DNA of 64,000 bases from Niabella ginsenosidivorans. Lineage in GTDB: Bacteria; Bacteroidota; Bacteroidia; Chitinophagales; Chitinophagaceae. The DNA is taken from assembly GCF_001654455.1 (NCBI RefSeq), contig NZ_CP015772.1, forward strand, positions 5,208,001-5,272,000. The letters are read 5' to 3'. Of this stretch, positions 48,371 to 59,201 are shown piece after piece (position 1 is the stretch's first letter; every line of letters begins with the position of its first letter). The notes beneath the pieces are model-generated. The model was not told where the DNA came from and made no database searches. It saw nothing but the letters and a program-made list of their open reading frames with translations. A program made the translations under genes and the position numbers.

Positions 48371-49684
48371 ATGTCAAAGGTAATTGAGTTTGAGCAACAA
48401 AATCCAGATGCAGCAGCCATAGATATCGGCTCCAAAAAGATTTTCGTTTCCACTGACGGGGTTACGGTAAAAAGCTATGATACATTTACGACTGGCTATC
48501 GGCAATGCATTGAAGCGCTCCTGCAACAGAAAATAAAACGGGTTTGTATGGAAGCAACGGGTATTTACTGGATAGCCTTACACCAGATGCTGGAGGAAGC
48601 AGGCATGGAAGTCTGCCTTGTAAATCCTAAAGAAGTAAAACAGGTAAAGGGTAGAAAAACCGATGTAAAAGATGCGTGCTGGATGCAAAAAATGTTTAGT
48701 GCAGGCCTGGTACGGCAAAGCTATATACCCTCAGGAAAGTTAAAGGAGTTGCGCATGATGATCCGGGAGCGGGAAGATCTTATTAGTATGGGAAGTACCT
48801 ATGTAAATAAGATGCAAAAAGCATTGGAGTTAATGAATATAAAACTCACAGAAGTGATTTGTCAGATAAATGGGACAAGCGGGATCCGGATGATCGAAGC
48901 CATCTTAAACGGAGAACGCAATAAAGAAAAGCTGCTGTCTCTGTGTCACGTAAGCATCCGTGAAAAGAAAGCACAGCAGGTAATCAATGCGCTGGAAGGC
49001 CATTATAATGAAAGCTGGTTGTTTCTATTAGAACAAAGCTTAAATCTTTGGAAGGTTCATCAGCAACAACTGTTGCTTATTGATAAACATATCGAAGGCT
49101 TGTTGTGTAATCTTGAGCATGGCAAACAGTTCATTACAAGTGAACACAAAGCCAAGCCAATACGGCATCACAAGCCCATGATAACCGGCCTGCATCAGAA
49201 ATTACTAAATATTTATGGTGCAGATGCCAATTGTATTCCTGGTATCACCGATTATACACTGCTGAAATTGTTGGGAGAAGTGGGAGCAGACATGAGCCGA
49301 TTCCCAACGGCAAAACATTTTGTAAGTTGGTGTGGCCTTTGTCCGGGCCATAACCAAAGTGGTTTAAAAAGCAGAAAATCGAAAATGAACAATCATTCTA
49401 ATGCCGGTCAGACCTTCCGGGAAATAGCCCAGGCATTACTCAATAGTAAGTATGTGGCAATAGGAGCTTTTATCAGAAAACTTAAGAGTAGAAAGAATGC
49501 ACGAATAGCGATCAAAGCAGGTGCCAGAAAAATAGCGGAAGCCTTTTATAACCTGCTAACAAAGGGAACGCAATACGTGGAACAGGGTATTGCAAAATAT
49601 GAACAGCAATTAAAACAGCGTGAACAAAACTATTTACAAAAACTGGCTTTAAAACACGGATTAAAGATCATTGAAATACAATGA
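48371..49684 (+). CDS. IS110-family transposase (DEDD recombinase)
   Basis: A 437-residue transposase. The N-terminal RuvC-like DEDD domain has AAIDIGSKKIFV (Asp about 18), VCMEATGIYW (Glu about 60) and GRKTDVKDACWMQ (Asp residues about 95-99). A central helical region follows, then the C-terminal Tnp_20 domain with IPGITDYTLLKLLGEVGADMSRFPTAKHFVSWCGLCPGHNQ, including the conserved serine region. Such enzymes move DNA with a bridge RNA and a serine nucleophile. All motifs are intact, so it may be active. It reads opposite to both flanking family X genes. Confidence 0.92.
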   Translation: MSKVIEFEQQNPDAAAIDIGSKKIFVSTDGVTVKSYDTFTTGYRQCIEALLQQKIKRVCMEATGIYWIALHQMLEEAGMEVCLVNPKEVKQVKGRKTDVKDACWMQKMFSAGLVRQSYIPSGKLKELRMMIREREDLISMGSTYVNKMQKALELMNIKLTEVICQINGTSGIRMIEAILNGERNKEKLLSLCHVSIREKKAQQVINALEGHYNESWLFLLEQSLNLWKVHQQQLLLIDKHIEGLLCNLEHGKQFITSEHKAKPIRHHKPMITGLHQKLLNIYGADANCIPGITDYTLLKLLGEVGADMSRFPTAKHFVSWCGLCPGHNQSGLKSRKSKMNNHSNAGQTFREIAQALLNSKYVAIGAFIRKLKSRKNARIAIKAGARKIAEAFYNLLTKGTQYVEQGIAKYEQQLKQREQNYLQKLALKHGLKIIEIQ

Positions 49685-50713: not shown

Positions 50714-51240
50714 TGCTCATGCTGCGGCTGCATAGTACCGGGGAAAGCCGTAATAATTTCCCCGCTGGTGCTGCTAATTACCGTAATGGTGGTTACAGTA
50801 TTACCTGCGGGGTCATAACCCACGGGCATGCCCGCATCCCATACCCGTTGCAGGTGGCGGCTGCGCGGCACAGCAATAGGTTGCTGCGTTCCTGCTTCTT
50901 TTATGCAAGCTACTATTTGCGGTATAGGTATGGTAAACCTGCCGGCAAGCGGAACTTGTGTGTCTCCATCCTCCGGCGGAACTTGCCCGCCAGCCAGCGG
51001 GTGGGGTGGCACTGTACAGTAATGCCGCTCTAAAATATGTGCCAGCGCTTTGGCGCTCAGGTACCAGCCCTGGCGCAGCAGCTTTTTACGGCGCTTTACG
51101 GGCAGCTGCCATATAAGCGCCTCCTGCAAATGCTGCAGCCAGCCTTGCGCCTCTGCCAGCAAAAACAGGGCCTGCAGCCATTGGGTTTCATTAAAATGGG
51201 GGTTGGTGTTTTGTACAGGTGTAGTAACGGCGTTGTCCAT
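50704..51240 (-). CDS. Uncharacterised protein with nuclease-toxin-like C-terminal pattern
   Basis: A 178-residue protein. The N-terminal 60 residues are helical and basic. Residues 65-73 (LAHILERHY) give an H-x-x-x-R-H motif, then 'FTIPIPQIVACIKEAG' (102-117) and 'VWDAGMPVGYDPAGNTVTTITVIS' followed by 'SGEIITAFPG' (to 168). This order (HxxxRH, hydrophobic helix, G-x-x-x-G-Y-D, strand, TAFPG ending) resembles BECR-fold RNase toxins of polymorphic toxin systems, but I could not assign a family, so this is inference. No secretion domain is present. A structured RNA with its own promoter and terminator lies directly upstream, and family X copy 2 directly downstream. Confidence 0.6.
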   Translation of the reverse strand: MDNAVTTPVQNTNPHFNETQWLQALFLLAEAQGWLQHLQEALIWQLPVKRRKKLLRQGWYLSAKALAHILERHYCTVPPHPLAGGQVPPEDGDTQVPLAGRFTIPIPQIVACIKEAGTQQPIAVPRSRHLQRVWDAGMPVGYDPAGNTVTTITVISSTSGEIITAFPGTMQPQHEQDL

Positions 51241-51271
51241 AACAAAAAAGTTTTAGGCCGGGCACCCGCAC

Positions 51272-51446
51272 AAAAAAGGCGTGGTGCTCAACTTACCGCA
51301 TTAGAGGTACTGGTATACCCATGCAACGGATAAGAGAGCCCACGCCCAGGTCGTGAGCCATTCTGCTTATCATCTCGTTGCACTTAAAAGTTACCAGTTT
51401 TCTAATGCGAGATTCAAAGCGAATGCTTCAAATAATTTTATGAAGT
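51272..51446 (-). ncRNA. Predicted structured RNA upstream of the toxin-like gene
   Basis: On the minus strand a promoter (TTG at 51480-51482, 20-bp spacer, TATTTTTG at 51452-51459) precedes a long hairpin. Its pairings: CGCATTAGA/TCTAATGCG (51401-51409 with 51297-51305), ACTGGTA/TACCAGT, GCAACG/CGTTGC and GATAAG/CTTATC (51366-51381 with 51323-51334). Its apical loop contains GGCGTGGGCTC (51336-51346), which pairs with GAGCACCACGCC (51278-51289) outside the hairpin, giving a pseudoknot or an alternative terminator stem, followed by TTTTTT. The length of about 175 nt and the fold match no class I know. Confidence 0.65.
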
Positions 51447-51451
51447 AATCG

Positions 51452-51482
51452 CAAAAATATTATTCGATACAAATATAGGCAA
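51452..51482 (-). promoter_or_regulatory. Promoter of the structured RNA (TTG-N20-TATTTTTG)
   Basis: The minus strand shows ATTG, a 20-bp spacer and an exact TAnnTTTG element, the Bacteroidota sigma-ABfr pattern. The expected start is near 51446. Confidence 0.6.
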
Positions 51483-51494
51483 TTTTATCATTTT

Positions 51495-51510
51495 GCGGAC
51501 AGGTGTCCGC
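51495..51510. promoter_or_regulatory. Palindrome GCGGACA-GG-TGTCCGC upstream of the HTH gene
   Basis: A 7-bp perfect inverted repeat is followed by TTTATTTTTTT. It sits between the divergent RNA promoter and the small HTH gene (start 51544). It could be an operator for that protein or a terminator; position favours an operator that also touches the RNA promoter. Confidence 0.5.
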
Positions 51511-51543
51511 TTTATTTTTTTCCACAAAGTTTTTATTTGTTAG

Positions 51544-51774
51544 ATGCAGGATTTATATGCTACTATAAATGATTTTATTTCTCGGGAATGGATCGGCCCA
51601 AGCGAAGAATCTGCCCGTGCATTTGCAACCAATCACGATATTGATGAAAAAACTGTAAGACGAATAAAAGGTTGGAAAGATGCCTCTTACCAAATTACAA
51701 TATATACTCTTGAAAAAATTTGCACTGCAAGGGATTTAACGCTAGAGGAGTTTTTTAAGTTGATAAAGCGGTGA
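51544..51774 (+). CDS. Small helix-turn-helix protein
   Basis: A 76-residue protein. 'SARAFATNHDIDEKTVRRIKGWKDASYQITIYTLEKICTARDLTLEEFFKLI' has the spacing of an XRE-type helix-turn-helix, with the recognition helix at about 36-46 and the closing 'LEEFF' of many Cro/C1 regulators. It probably binds DNA as a dimer. It is divergent from the structured RNA and toxin-like gene, with a perfect palindrome between, so control of that unit is likely but not shown. Confidence 0.7.
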   Translation: MQDLYATINDFISREWIGPSEESARAFATNHDIDEKTVRRIKGWKDASYQITIYTLEKICTARDLTLEEFFKLIKR

Positions 51775-52033
51775 GCTGCGCTCTTTCTTCATCATTGTGA
51801 GGACGGGTGGGACTTGTGGGACAGGGGTATCATAGCTATTCTTTTGAAAGTAGAACAATTATGTGTTGCCCTGGTCGACCAGGGCAATAAAAGCAACCAT
51901 ACCCTGGAAATTACTAAATGTCGCACCAGTCGACCAGGTCTCCGAAAACAACCAGCTGCCCTATATTGAGCTGCTGAAGAGTGCGACGCAACACCGCTGC
52001 CACCTGCACCACAGCCGGGACAATAAAAACTAC
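51775..52033. other. Spacer between HTH and Abi genes with GTCGAC palindromes
   Basis: No gene is supported. At 51866-51887 TTGCCCTGGTC and GACCAGGGCAA form a perfect 22-bp palindrome with no loop. A second, imperfect one (ACCAGTCGACCAGGT) lies at 51925-51939. Both centre on GTCGAC. Confidence 0.6.
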
Positions 52034-52936
52034 TCACATTGTCCACAATGCTTCACCTTCCCAATTAGGTTTAAATCCTAAAGCATTAGGATCTACCGAT
52101 GGGTACTTTTTTAATAACTCCTGTAGTTTTTTTGAAAATGAGTTTTCAGGAGCTATTATATTTAACAAATAGCGCATAATGCAAAAATGGAGATACAGTT
52201 TTTGTGTATCTTTTGGAACATCATTAACCCATAAATGTGGTGGTTTTGACAGAAGCTTTGGAGTGCCTGGTAAATTTTTATTCCACAGGCGGCTATGATG
52301 TGCACAGTAATTACGTATTTGCGCAATAGATTGCAGCCAACTGGGTAAATACGTATGATTGACAGCGCCTAATTCTACGGCAATAATATCTTTGGATTTT
52401 ACCGTATTGTTTAAATTTCCGTACAATTTGGATAAAGAGCCGAAACTGGTTAGCTCCAATGTTTTCCATGCCGGGGGAAAACGCAGATCTTCTTTGTATT
52501 TTCTTTTATGCTCTTTTATAAAGATGTCTTTAGAGCGGTTTACTTCTTCCTGAATTGACGCCAACGTTTCAACTAATGCAGAGGTGTCATTAAAAATTGC
52601 GGTATTTTGAAACCACCAGGGATCAAATTCATGCGATAAATGATAAATCAGTTTAGTTCGCAGACTGATTTCAATTTTTTCAATAACATCAAATAATAAA
52701 ACCCTTAGCTCTCTGTCAAAATTGTAGAGGTGTATAACGTCTTCAAACCGACTGTTGGGTTTGAATAAGTGCGCTTCCTTATCGGCCTGCATAGGCCACC
52801 AATAACCTGCAAGCCGGTAGTAGCTAACCTGTGAAAGATAATGTGTGGCCAGTGCATCATCGTCAATTTGTAAGCCACGCTGTTGCAGTTGTTTTATTTG
52901 ATCACTTATAGTATATGGTTGTTTATTATATAACAT
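52034..52936 (-). CDS. Abi_2 (AbiD/AbiF-family) HEPN abortive-infection protein
   Basis: A 300-residue protein of the Abi_2 family. The N-terminal pattern 'PYTISDQIKQLQQRGLQIDDDALATHYLSQVSYYRLAGYWWPMQ' is diagnostic, followed by 'LYNFDRELRVLLFDVIEKIEISLRTKLIYHLS'. The HEPN RNase motif R-x4-H appears as IRNYCAHHSRLWN (about 210-220). Such proteins stop phage growth by cutting RNA. The start ATG 52936 (MLYNKQPYT) is chosen over GTG 52963, because the earlier codon lies inside the terminator of the upstream RNA. The gene ends convergently to the HTH gene. The RNA upstream makes this a candidate two-part RNA-protein defence unit. Confidence 0.88.
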   Translation of the reverse strand: MLYNKQPYTISDQIKQLQQRGLQIDDDALATHYLSQVSYYRLAGYWWPMQADKEAHLFKPNSRFEDVIHLYNFDRELRVLLFDVIEKIEISLRTKLIYHLSHEFDPWWFQNTAIFNDTSALVETLASIQEEVNRSKDIFIKEHKRKYKEDLRFPPAWKTLELTSFGSLSKLYGNLNNTVKSKDIIAVELGAVNHTYLPSWLQSIAQIRNYCAHHSRLWNKNLPGTPKLLSKPPHLWVNDVPKDTQKLYLHFCIMRYLLNIIAPENSFSKKLQELLKKYPSVDPNALGFKPNWEGEALWTM

Positions 52937-52950
52937 TGGATAGCATTCAT

Positions 52951-53068
52951 AAAAAAACCGCACAGATAATTACGATGTAATACCTATACGGAACTGTAAT
53001 ATTTTATTCTTAAAAGCAAAAGACTCGCCCTGGTACGCTGTTCTGTGGGTAGCGTGGCGAGTACTGTT
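52951..53068 (-). ncRNA. Predicted abiF-type small RNA upstream of the HEPN gene
   Basis: On the minus strand a TATCTTCG element (53073-53080) is followed by a hairpin ACTCGCC-ACGCT...AGCGT-ACCAG-GGCGAGT (53023-53062, stems of 7 and 5 bp). Then come an A/T-rich linker and a terminator: CCGTATAG/CTGTGCGG (52984-52991 with 52958-52965, two wobbles) enclosing ATTAC-ATC-GTAAT and followed by T7 (52951-52957). The transcript would be about 115 nt and end 15 bp before the HEPN start codon. Structured RNAs of this kind upstream of AbiF-type proteins are known from earlier RNA-motif searches. Confidence 0.7.
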
Positions 53069-53072
53069 AATA

Positions 53073-53080
53073 CGAAGATA
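53073..53080 (-). promoter_or_regulatory. -7 element (TATCTTCG) of the abiF-type RNA
   Basis: One mismatch to TAnnTTTG, placed 10 bases before the hairpin of the RNA. There is no clear -33 TTG. Confidence 0.45.
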
Positions 53081-53101
53081 CTTATTTTTTACACAGTGAG
53101 T

Positions 53102-53188
53102 AGTATTTTTCTTGGAATAGTTGGGCTGGTTGCCGGATTTAAGGCGTTCATCATCCAGCGTAAATCCTTTTATTAAATATTCCTTCAC
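53102..53188 (-). pseudogene. RhuM-family (virulence protein) remnant
   Basis: From ATG 53188 the minus strand encodes KEYLIKGFTLDDERLKSGN and a few more residues (QPNY), the 'KGFxxDDERLK' segment typical of RhuM-family proteins, then drifts into unrelated sequence. RhuM-type proteins are over 300 residues, so only about 25 are left. It abuts the promoter of the abiF-type RNA, and probably marks older defence-island content. Confidence 0.65.
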
Positions 53189-53205
53189 AATTTAAAACAA
53201 CCGTT

Positions 53206-53712
53206 ATGACAAATGCAACCTTTAACCGTGTGGATGCCACACTAACGCCCGAAGCTGTAAAAACTGTAAAAGACCACATTACCGCCATTGAGCAAACCCT
53301 GCCCTTTTTAGTGGGCCTTACCGGTACGGAGCGCGTGGCCCTGCCAAAAGTAAATGTAAACAACAAAGTGTTTACGGAAGATGCTATACAGGTGGCGGTA
53401 AATAATGCTACCCTGCTGCCTGCTTTTGTAAACGTGGAGGGTATGAAAAAAGACCTGGCCCTTTATCATGCGCTGGATGAGCTGGTGCTGCTGGTGCAGC
53501 AACTGGCAGAAAAACTGTCGAACACGCAATTGCTGGCGGGCAGTGAGGCCTATACCAGCGCCCTGGCCATTTACAAAATTTTTGGCGCCGCCAGTGAAGC
53601 GGGTGTACAGGGCACTAAAACCCTGCATGAGCAGCTAAGGCAACGGTTTGGTGGCCAGGGTAAAAGCACGGCACCCCTACCGGAAGGCACGGGTACCGTA
53701 CCAAATACCTAA
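53206..53712 (+). CDS. Uncharacterised Bacteroidota protein, family Z
   Basis: A 168-residue, helical, cytoplasmic protein: 'TLTPEAVKTVKDHITAIEQTLPFLVGLTGTERVALPKV', 'FVNVEGMKKDLALYHALDELVLLVQQLAEKLSNTQLLAGSEAYTSALAIYKIFGAA', and a Gly/Pro/Thr-rich tail (from about 148). I recall similar orphan proteins in many Bacteroidota genomes, usually in accessory regions, without known function. It is followed by a strong terminator at 53793. It starts 18 bp from the end of the RhuM remnant, on the opposite strand. Confidence 0.72.
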   Translation: MTNATFNRVDATLTPEAVKTVKDHITAIEQTLPFLVGLTGTERVALPKVNVNNKVFTEDAIQVAVNNATLLPAFVNVEGMKKDLALYHALDELVLLVQQLAEKLSNTQLLAGSEAYTSALAIYKIFGAASEAGVQGTKTLHEQLRQRFGGQGKSTAPLPEGTGTVPNT

Positions 53713-58479: not shown

Positions 58480-58800
58480 ATGCAGTCGGATTCTAAAATA
58501 TTTTTTCAAATAATACGAGCCGTTCAACAACTGATTCCTGATGCAGAAGTGCATTTGTTTGGCAGCCGGCTTAATCATACTGCTACTGATGAAAGTGACT
58601 GGGATATTTTGATACTATTAAATGAAAAACCATCAAAGCAATTAAAACAAAAAATTCATGATGCGGTATTCCCGATCAGTATAGCGGCAAATGCATTTAT
58701 TAATACCCTTATTGCCAGCAAAAATGACTGGAACAACAATCCATCTTATTATTCGATCCATCAGTCTATCCGGAATAATGATTTGTCAGTTGCAAAATGA
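58480..58800 (+). CDS. Minimal nucleotidyltransferase (MNT) domain protein, antitoxin of MNT/HEPN pair
   Basis: A 106-residue nucleotidyltransferase of the MNT group. The GSR motif is in VHLFGSRLNHTATDESDWDILILL (about 25-48), with the D-x-D metal pair in SDWDIL. In MntA/HepT-like pairs the MNT protein AMPylates and blocks the HEPN RNase. The following gene overlaps by 4 bp (ATGA), a typical coupled TA layout. It has its own promoter. Confidence 0.85.
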   Translation: MQSDSKIFFQIIRAVQQLIPDAEVHLFGSRLNHTATDESDWDILILLNEKPSKQLKQKIHDAVFPISIAANAFINTLIASKNDWNNNPSYYSIHQSIRNNDLSVAK

Positions 58801-59201
58801 GCAGTGTTAAACATTTATCCGTTCAACAAAAATTACGTAAAGCACATGCGTTGTTTAATGAAGTTGAAACCCTCATTCAGTTCGGGTATTATACAACTGC
58901 CGTTAACCGTCTGTATTATGCGTGTTTTCACGCGGTAAAAGCATTATTGCTTACAAAGGATCTTATTCCTAAAACGCATAGCGGTACGGTTGCCTTGTTG
59001 CATAAACACTTTGTACAGGCGCAATTGTTTGATATACAACAAGCTTCTTTTTACAGCAGGATCATGCAAGAGCGTATTGACGATGATTATAATGATTTTA
59101 TACTAACTGATAAAGATGAAGTGAACAGCTTTGTTTCGCCGGCTAAAGAACTAATTGCATATATTGAACGCTTAATAGATATAACCAGTAATGAGTATTG
59201 A
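58797..59201 (+). CDS. HEPN-domain protein, toxin of MNT/HEPN pair
   Basis: A 134-residue HEPN protein (PF05168-like). The N-terminal helix holds NRLYYACFHAVKALL (about 41-55), with R-x6-H as the putative active motif, and 'KTHSGTVALLHKHFV' (about 64-78), the usual second block. HEPN members of this type may act as RNases; with the MNT partner it forms a TA or defence module. Its last 11 bp overlap the hemL start, so hemL translation is tied to it. Confidence 0.82.
   Translation: MSSVKHLSVQQKLRKAHALFNEVETLIQFGYYTTAVNRLYYACFHAVKALLLTKDLIPKTHSGTVALLHKHFVQAQLFDIQQASFYSRIMQERIDDDYNDFILTDKDEVNSFVSPAKELIAYIERLIDITSNEY

What the first reader, a model, noticed from the sequence alone, without database searches (positions are those of the whole stretch)
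52034..53080. AbiF-type HEPN protein with its own small structured RNA: a two-part RNA/protein defence unit
The Abi_2 protein carries an R-x4-H HEPN motif (RNYCAH). Upstream on the same strand there is a -7 box, a 40-nt two-part hairpin, and an 8-bp terminator stem with an inner hairpin and T7, all before the start codon. So an RNA of about 115 nt is predicted to end 15 bp before the gene. From memory, a structured RNA class upstream of abiF-like genes has been described, and AbiF-type HEPN/RNA pairs have been proposed as toxin-antitoxins ancestral to Cas13. Whether this Bacteroidota copy belongs to the same RNA class is my inference; the sequences around the hairpin may be a divergent variant.
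Basis: partly seen in the sequence, partly recalled or inferred. Interest (0 to 1): 0.88.

Follow-up and report, generated by a model that had tools for sequence, protein, structure and literature searches.

The report
AbiF toxin with its RNA antidote
A bacterium carries an RNA-cutting suicide-type enzyme preceded by a small RNA that probably holds it in check, and many bacterial viruses turn out to carry that small RNA alone, often beside their tRNA genes, which suggests they use it as a decoy to disarm the enzyme.

Summary
Window 52034-52936 (minus) encodes an AbiF (Abi_2/HEPN) protein whose one solved relative is PbAbiF bound to its ncRNA (8vz6). Upstream lie a -7-like box, a 40-nt two-part hairpin and a terminator. 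The hairpin domain precedes AbiF in 79 of 79 readable relatives, with compensatory changes in the outer stem. It is a Bacteroidota variant of the abiF RNA: architecture of Rfam RF03085, different sequence, missed by Rfam, bridged by a locus both models detect. Most likely a type-III-like toxin/RNA-antitoxin pair.

Following the RNA led further. The same RNA sits without AbiF in viral contigs (0 of 94 loci with AbiF) and its stems covary. RF03085-type solo copies occur in isolated phages of Synechococcus, Acinetobacter, Aeromonas, Mycobacterium and others (0 of 15 genomes with Abi_2). Both kinds lie beside tRNA genes more often than chance: 25 of 79 (random mean 0.5; 8 of 30 context clusters) and 42 of 95 (random mean 2.1; 5 of 38 clusters). 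I propose phage-borne decoy antitoxins, an RNA-based anti-AbiF counter-defence. In the held library only one such copy (cyanophage S-CREM1) was found, without a mechanism. Function is untested.

The parts
53073..53080 (-). -7-like promoter box TATCTTCG of the RNA (Bacteroidota consensus TAnnTTTG, recalled)
   Evidence: position; TAnnTTTG in 73 of 80 aligned loci, 72 of them at the same 4-nt spacing; the window's own box is one of the 7 that depart
52951..53068 (-). predicted ~118-nt RNA: conserved antitoxin domain, linker and terminator
   Evidence: 5' end inferred from the conserved AACAG 4 nt after the -7 box; 3' end from the T7 run; not shown by RNA-seq
53023..53062 (-). two-part hairpin: outer stem 53062-53056 / 53029-53023, inner stem 53055-53051 / 53039-53035, loop 53050-53040, 3' bulge ACCAG 53034-53030
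   Evidence: fold; outer stem 100% paired in 69 distinct sequences, compensatory changes at 2 outer and 1 inner pair
53013..53022 (-). conserved tail CTTTTGCTTT after the hairpin
   Evidence: alignment A1, columns 63-67 identical in 79 or 80 of 80 rows, columns 68-70 in 67-76 of 80
52951..52991 (-). intrinsic terminator: stem 52991-52958 and T7
   Evidence: fold z = -5.6, 0 of 200 shuffles as stable
52034..52936 (-). AbiF (Abi_2 / AbiD-F) HEPN protein, 300 aa
   Evidence: Pfam PF07751 E 4.5e-56; PADLOC AbiD 9.6e-82; PDB 8vz6 phmmer E 3.4e-62; AlphaFold model pLDDT 94, Foldseek TM 0.89 to 8vz6, the only hit with E <= 0.001
52298..52315 (-). HEPN catalytic motif R208-N-Y-C-A-H213
   Evidence: R[NDH]xxxH in 79 of 81 proteins; the two misses (L048, L079) are reading frames cut short by a stop in my translation; R208, N209, H213, H214 invariant in 30 aligned

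Best explanation
The window holds a type-III-like toxin/RNA-antitoxin pair of the AbiF kind. Transcription makes the short structured RNA and mostly stops at the terminator; occasional read-through makes AbiF mRNA. The RNA's hairpin, with its conserved loop, 3' bulge and U-rich tail, binds the AbiF dimer and blocks the HEPN RNase. When infection upsets RNA supply, AbiF is freed, cuts RNA and stops growth. Shown here: gene, catalytic motif, fold match to the solved PbAbiF-ncRNA complex, promoter-like box, RNA structure with covariation, and pairing of RNA and gene in 79 of 79 readable close relatives. Inferred from characterised relatives: neutralisation by direct binding, RNase toxicity, abortive infection. 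Trigger and RNA target are unknown. An extension follows from the relatives: the same RNA domain is carried alone by many phages, most plausibly as a decoy antitoxin.
For: Protein. RNA in 79 of 79 relatives with readable upstream DNA; outer stem 100% paired in 69 distinct sequences, 57 double-change cells against 16.2 in shuffles, slid controls <= 55% paired. Presence in 5 of 17 genomes of the genus, own included, and a block of nucleotide similarity to L002/L084 that spans 52023-53149, i.e. RNA plus gene (a second similar block, 50993-51777, lies beside it), fit a mobile accessory unit. Characterised relatives: AbiF of C. difficile is toxic and its RNA neutralises it in cis and in trans by direct binding; stem-breaking changes abolish and compensatory changes keep the activity (PMC12373285, passages). 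PbAbiF: nucleotides of a bulge in its RNA inhibit the RNase (review PMC12737573, passages).
Against: No expression, binding or toxicity data for this copy. In one search two of five covariation measures do not beat the shuffles (3 pairs with a double change, reached by 45 of 500; 6 further pair types, reached by 494 of 500), because most pairs are invariant. In 296 Bacteroidota genomes 20 of 46 R1 places have no Abi_2 domain within 400 nt and 17 of 43 Abi_2 places have no R1 upstream, so the coupling is not absolute across the phylum. Of 79 AbiF genes in viral contigs with readable upstream DNA only 13 show a core that my simple patterns recognise.
Confidence: 0.88

Rival explanations
1. The RNA is only a cis-acting leader (attenuator): it controls transcription of abiF through the terminator and does not bind the protein.
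For: A strong terminator lies between RNA and gene in the window, and premature termination is part of the C. difficile system (PMC12373285 passages).
Against: Some relatives have only 11-18 nt between the conserved RNA domain and the aligned start, too little for a terminator, while the hairpin is there. The same domain occurs away from any AbiF in viruses with loop and bulge kept. The RNA acts in trans in C. difficile.
Confidence: 0.07
2. The RNA is a guide: AbiF is a Cas13-like nuclease directed to targets by the RNA.
For: AbiF is the proposed ancestor of Cas13 (PMC12165695 and PMC12737573, passages).
Against: No part of the conserved domain varies freely as a spacer would; in most rows only a few loop positions and two stem pairs vary, and only some rows have longer loop inserts.
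Confidence: 0.03
3. The solo viral copies are not counter-defence but a phage housekeeping RNA (for instance a tRNA-array processing spacer or regulator) from which the AbiF antitoxin was recruited.
For: They are conserved in tRNA arrays of unrelated phages, and I did not show that the hosts of these phages carry AbiF.
Against: Nucleotides kept in the solo copies are the ones kept in the AbiF-paired RNAs (loop, CCAG bulge, AGUA lead), and other solo copies sit outside tRNA arrays (T7-like Aeromonas phages between connector and scaffold genes; between genes in L149 and L150).
Confidence: 0.2
4. The solo viral copies are decayed remnants of AbiF modules.
For: AbiF-bearing viral contigs exist (105 found), and short AbiF fragments follow some bacterial RNAs (L092, L117).
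Against: 98.6% of stem cells paired and 6 of 7 outer pairs with compensatory changes in 52 distinct viral RNAs: the structure is under selection. No AbiF remnant by tblastn in 94 loci.
Confidence: 0.03

Closest known systems
PbAbiF-PbAbiFr (Prevotellaceae; PDB 8vz6; the Cell 2025 paper was not read, known here through PMC12737573 and PMC12373285 passages)
   Same: Protein homologous over its whole length, same fold (TM 0.89), HEPN motif, upstream ncRNA
   Different: About 36% identical protein; the RNA here is a sequence variant not detected by Rfam RF03085.
AbiFCd-RCd22 of Clostridioides difficile prophages (PMC12373285, passages)
   Same: AbiF gene preceded by promoter, structured RNA, terminator; abiF-type hairpins
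   Different: RCd22 has two abiF motifs, this RNA has one; different sequence variant
Rfam RF03085 abiF RNA
   Same: Outer stem ending CC, unpaired or weakly paired A, short inner stem with GC, ~11-nt loop, 5-6 nt 3' bulge, GG.. stem
   Different: Loop ACCCAUnnGAnCA and bulge CCCAG/ACCAG instead of CUCUCAACGAU and CAAAUC; no abiF match in the window at the gathering score or in 52900-53250 at E <= 10
Pseudo-ToxI of phage PhiTE (PMC3475682, passages)
   Same: Phage-borne RNA that mimics a type III antitoxin to suppress abortive infection
   Different: A different toxin family; became active by expansion of repeats, not a conserved single copy in a tRNA array
Racrs, RNA anti-CRISPRs (PMC10651486, start of abstract in listing)
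   Same: Solitary copies in viral genomes of the RNA partner of a host defence nuclease
   Different: Mimic CRISPR repeats, not AbiF antitoxins

Membership tests
AbiF (Abi_2 / AbiD-F) toxin | Abi_2 domain and full-length similarity to a solved AbiF | tested here: met
AbiF (Abi_2 / AbiD-F) toxin | HEPN catalytic motif R-N/H/D-x3-H | tested here: met
   R208-N-Y-C-A-H213
AbiF (Abi_2 / AbiD-F) toxin | RNase toxicity neutralised by the RNA | not testable with these tools
   no wet experiment
Rfam RF03085 abiF RNA | score at or above the gathering cut-off of 37 bits | tested here: not met
   no match in the window, none up to E 10 in 52900-53250, none at the gathering score in 18 of the 80 relatives' loci
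Rfam RF03085 abiF RNA | architecture: outer stem / A / inner stem / loop / 3' bulge / outer stem, upstream of abiF | tested here: met
   L083 detected by both models. Verdict: works like the class and shares its architecture, but is not a member of the family as Rfam defines it
Type III toxin-antitoxin | RNA antitoxin encoded upstream of the toxin, terminator between them, direct RNA-protein inhibition | tested here: inconclusive
   genetic layout met in the window; direct inhibition not testable; no room for a terminator in some relatives
Type III toxin-antitoxin | tandem repeats in the antitoxin (classical ToxIN; recalled) | tested here: not met
   one R1 match in the whole genome
RNA-based phage counter-defence (pseudo-ToxI-like) | phage carries the antitoxin RNA without the toxin | tested here: met
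   0 of 94 viral loci with AbiF by tblastn; Abi_2 in 1 of 97 whole records examined
RNA-based phage counter-defence (pseudo-ToxI-like) | the phage RNA relieves the defence | not testable with these tools
   needs an efficiency-of-plating assay

The most novel reading that the evidence does not exclude
AbiF RNA antitoxins are a widespread phage counter-defence. Phages of very different hosts carry solo copies of the AbiF antitoxin RNA, in at least two sequence variants, the same ones that accompany AbiF genes. Many copies are slotted into tRNA arrays, so that tRNA-processing enzymes could release them. During infection the phage RNA keeps AbiF silent when the host's own antitoxin supply fails.
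Probability: 0.6. Interest if true: 0.88.

Novelty: new variant of a known kind. Interest (0 to 1): 0.72.

Why it matters
AbiF is the proposed ancestor of Cas13. The window adds an RNA variant that the public RNA library does not see, although it precedes AbiF in all 79 readable close relatives examined. Its solo copies in phages would be a natural class of RNA inhibitors of a Cas13-related nuclease, and would explain a set of mostly unannotated RNAs in phage tRNA arrays. The idea is directly testable because isolated phages with complete genomes carry RF03085-type copies.

Tried and rejected
Rfam at gathering and permissive thresholds found no RF03085 in the window (the two snoRNA hits below threshold are chance). 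A close-relative AbiF search in viral contigs found none; a profile search found 105, so AbiF-bearing viral contigs do exist. The window RNA and L155's RNA have no match in isolated phages by blastn: the Bacteroidota variant is so far seen only in uncultured viruses. Chance for the viral pattern hits: the loop pattern read backwards gives 0 stretches against 104. L162 and L210 look like chance matches and were dropped; 13 further weak loci (L168, L172, L181, L190, L192, L195, L199, L202, L208, L211, L217, L230, L241) were also left out of the 79 used; with only L162 and L210 dropped the adjacency is 25 of 92. Decay as the origin of solo copies was rejected because of covariation, although one of its five measures (6 pairs with a double change) is reached by 84 of 500 shuffles. 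A guide role was rejected because nothing in the domain varies like a spacer. In the set the outer stem pairs 6 of 6 in 71 of 95, against 23.8 on average when arms are swapped between loci; the 80 loci were not scored with a covariance model, so that set is weaker evidence. It forms 38 context clusters, the largest of 38 contigs, and only 5 clusters show tRNA adjacency. The search for a partner of other RNA subtypes beside non-Abi_2 genes (L100, L113-L116) gave no clear answer. The 2017 paper that described the abiF motif is not held, so I could not check what it says on phages.

Full report
What is there. The minus-strand ORF 52034-52936 encodes a 300-aa AbiF protein (Abi_2 E 4.5e-56; PADLOC AbiD 9.6e-82). 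Its only solved relative by sequence at E <= 0.01 is 8vz6 (phmmer E 3.4e-62). The AlphaFold model (pLDDT 94) matches 8vz6, 'PbAbiF dimer bound to ncRNA', at TM 0.89; no other PDB chain has E <= 0.001. The HEPN motif RNYCAH is R208-H213. The window lies in a 5.63-Mb single-contig genome with one match to the protein; 5 of 17 genomes of the genus, own included, have one.

The RNA. Upstream, in order: box TATCTTCG (53080-53073), AACAG at 53068, a two-part hairpin 53062-53023, a U-rich tail, a terminator (stem 52991-52958, T7 to 52951), then ATG 52936. Of 115 relatives found in genome contigs the best 80 were kept. All 79 with readable upstream DNA carry the same domain, 5'-AACAGUAC-stem-ACGCU-loop-AGCGU-[C/A]CCAG-stem-GUCUUUU, with small variations. 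TAnnTTTG lies 4 nt before it in 72 of 80 rows and 5 nt before it in one more. In 69 distinct sequences the outer stem is always paired; two outer pairs and one inner pair show changes on both sides. Two of the five covariation measures of that call do not beat shuffles, since most pairs never vary.

Relation to the known RNA. Rfam finds no abiF RNA in the window, nor at the gathering score in 18 of the 80 relatives' loci. In 296 Bacteroidota genomes RF03085 has matches in 2, one over the cut-off, whereas model R1, built from our 80 sequences, has 46 places in 36 genomes, 26 of them followed by an Abi_2 domain within 400 nt. The RF03085 hits show the same architecture with a different loop and bulge. 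L083 is found by both models (34.0 bits RF03085; 25.4 bits R1), and a same-genus AbiF of 36% identity (L087) carries an RF03085-like RNA at 29.7 bits, below the cut-off. So I read the two as variants of one class.

How it works. C. difficile AbiF is toxic; its RNA neutralises it in cis and in trans by direct binding; stem-breaking mutations abolish and compensatory ones keep this (PMC12373285, passages). In PbAbiF, nucleotides of a single-stranded bulge inhibit the RNase (PMC12737573, passages). Four of the five bulge positions of our RNA are identical in 79 or 80 of 80 rows. I infer the same mechanism.

Where the evidence led: solo copies in viruses. A scan of IMG/VR with a pattern on the 3' part of the RNA gave 17 stretches; R1 confirms 16, L162 looks like chance. 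A second scan with a pattern on the apical loop gave 104 stretches, 80 listed, 77 of them new. The backwards pattern gives none. R1 scores 63 of these 77 at 45 bits or more. tblastn finds AbiF in 0 of the 94 loci of both scans, with 15 queries and again with 95, and in 0 of 23 further second-scan loci that were held but not listed. Whole records: Abi_2 in 0 of 17 and 0 of 50 of the 77. Each pattern fixes only part of the RNA, and the part it does not fix is conserved too: the loop in the first set, and the bulge (C 52, C 51, A 49, G 51 of 52), lead and tail in an alignment of 52 that comes mostly from the second set. In these 52 distinct viral RNAs 98.6% of stem cells pair and 6 of 7 outer pairs have compensatory changes, with 79 double-change cells against 18.4 in shuffles; the number of pairs with a double change alone is reached by 84 of 500 shuffles. 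I take this as selection on the RNA structure in the absence of AbiF. Of 10 proteins from 8 of these loci, 5 match a phage family of named function: terminase (L155), tape measure (L148, weak), helicase (L221), ribonucleotide reductase (L150), primase/helicase (L209).

tRNA arrays. Of 79 strong viral RNAs (30 context clusters) 25 (8 clusters) begin within -3 to 10 nt of a tRNA 3' end on the same strand; random placement gives 0.52 on average, at most 4 in 2000 trials. In the unlisted set it is 5 of 23. In L158 the RNA fills the gap between tRNA-Thr (ends 6418) and tRNA-Val (starts 6473). The nine identical RNAs of L152 and its kin follow a tRNA-like 3' end that ARAGORN did not call (my reading of the sequence), so the count is probably conservative.

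The same in isolated phages with the RF03085 variant. The RF03085 consensus matches 74 phage records at E <= 10: 53 Mycobacterium, 5 Synechococcus, 4 Aeromonas, 3 Rhizobium, 2 each of Acinetobacter, Salicola and Arthrobacter, 3 others. The weakest (Rhizobium, Escherichia) may be chance, and some records are duplicates of one phage. I fetched 15 of the 74: 14 exceed the Rfam cut-off of 37 bits (38.4-58.0); Arthrobacter phage Mimi does not (33.0). Abi_2 is absent from all 15 records. Seven lie within 12 nt of a tRNA: S-SZBM1, S-CREM1, S-SRM01, Bromden, MrMagoo, Lolly9 and Mimi. Eight do not, among them the T7-like Aeromonas phages, where the RNA lies between connector and scaffold genes, and Acj61, where it lies about 1.9 kb past the tRNA cluster. 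L278, with RNA followed by AbiF, serves as positive control for the AbiF search.

What is in print. Searches over the held library found one report of a solo phage abiF RNA, cyanophage S-CREM1, whose section 3.5 (read) calls it probably functional and proposes no mechanism; it says that three other phage genomes are in the Rfam family. A later review repeats this (passage). Precedents for the idea are pseudo-ToxI (PMC3475682, passages) and Racrs (PMC10651486, start of abstract). The 2017 motif paper is not held; the Cell 2025 AbiF/Cas13 paper did not turn up in one search and was not looked up by id, so part of this may be known there.

Limits. No expression, binding or plating data. Hosts of the uncultured viruses are unknown, and I did not test whether hosts of the isolated phages carry AbiF. 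Contigs may be fragments. Viral scans list at most 80 stretches. Many AbiF genes have no RNA that my patterns recognise (recognised in 13 of 79 in viral contigs). In bacteria too, 20 of 46 R1 places lack a detected Abi_2 domain, some with AbiF fragments (L092 is counted as paired, L117 as not), some perhaps solo.

Noticed in passing
window 58480-59198 (+): A nucleotidyltransferase (PF01909) and HEPN (PF05168) gene pair, a MNT-HEPN toxin-antitoxin-like module 5.4 kb from the AbiF unit.
   Followed up: no
window 48371-49681 (+): IS110-family transposase (PF01548, PF02371), a family known for bridge RNAs (recalled); flanks not examined.
   Followed up: no
window 50993-51777: Block 81% identical to the Niabella MAG L002/L084 beside the shared AbiF unit, with no similarity reported for the 245 nt between.
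   Followed up: partly
L090 1501-1562 (-): An R1 RNA (78.4 bits) with a promoter-like box and terminator-like sequence in a bacterial genome without an Abi_2 hit at E <= 0.001, next to an HsdR gene of a type I restriction system.
   Followed up: partly
L100, L114, L115, L116 around 1501-1562: A related RNA subtype (AACAUGC..CCGCUUCCCnUAAGAnCAGCGCGCUCAG..) without AbiF beside it by tblastn; partner unknown.
   Followed up: partly
L106 844-904 and 1424-1484; L102 1501-1562 and 2662-2722: Two RNAs upstream of one AbiF (L106), and two AbiF units facing away from each other (L102).
   Followed up: no
L172, L181, L192, L195, L199, L202, L230, L241: A second viral subtype whose hairpin sits inside a larger shared context (..GUCGUAGUUCCUCUC..GAGAGCUAGAUCGUAAGCUAG..), scoring 25-30 bits with R1.
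   Followed up: no
L283 3381-3462 (+), Mycobacterium phage Thibault: Sub-threshold match (42.9 bits, cut-off 60.7) to DUF3800-IV RNA just before a tRNA-Tyr gene: other structured RNAs may also hide in phage tRNA regions.
   Followed up: no
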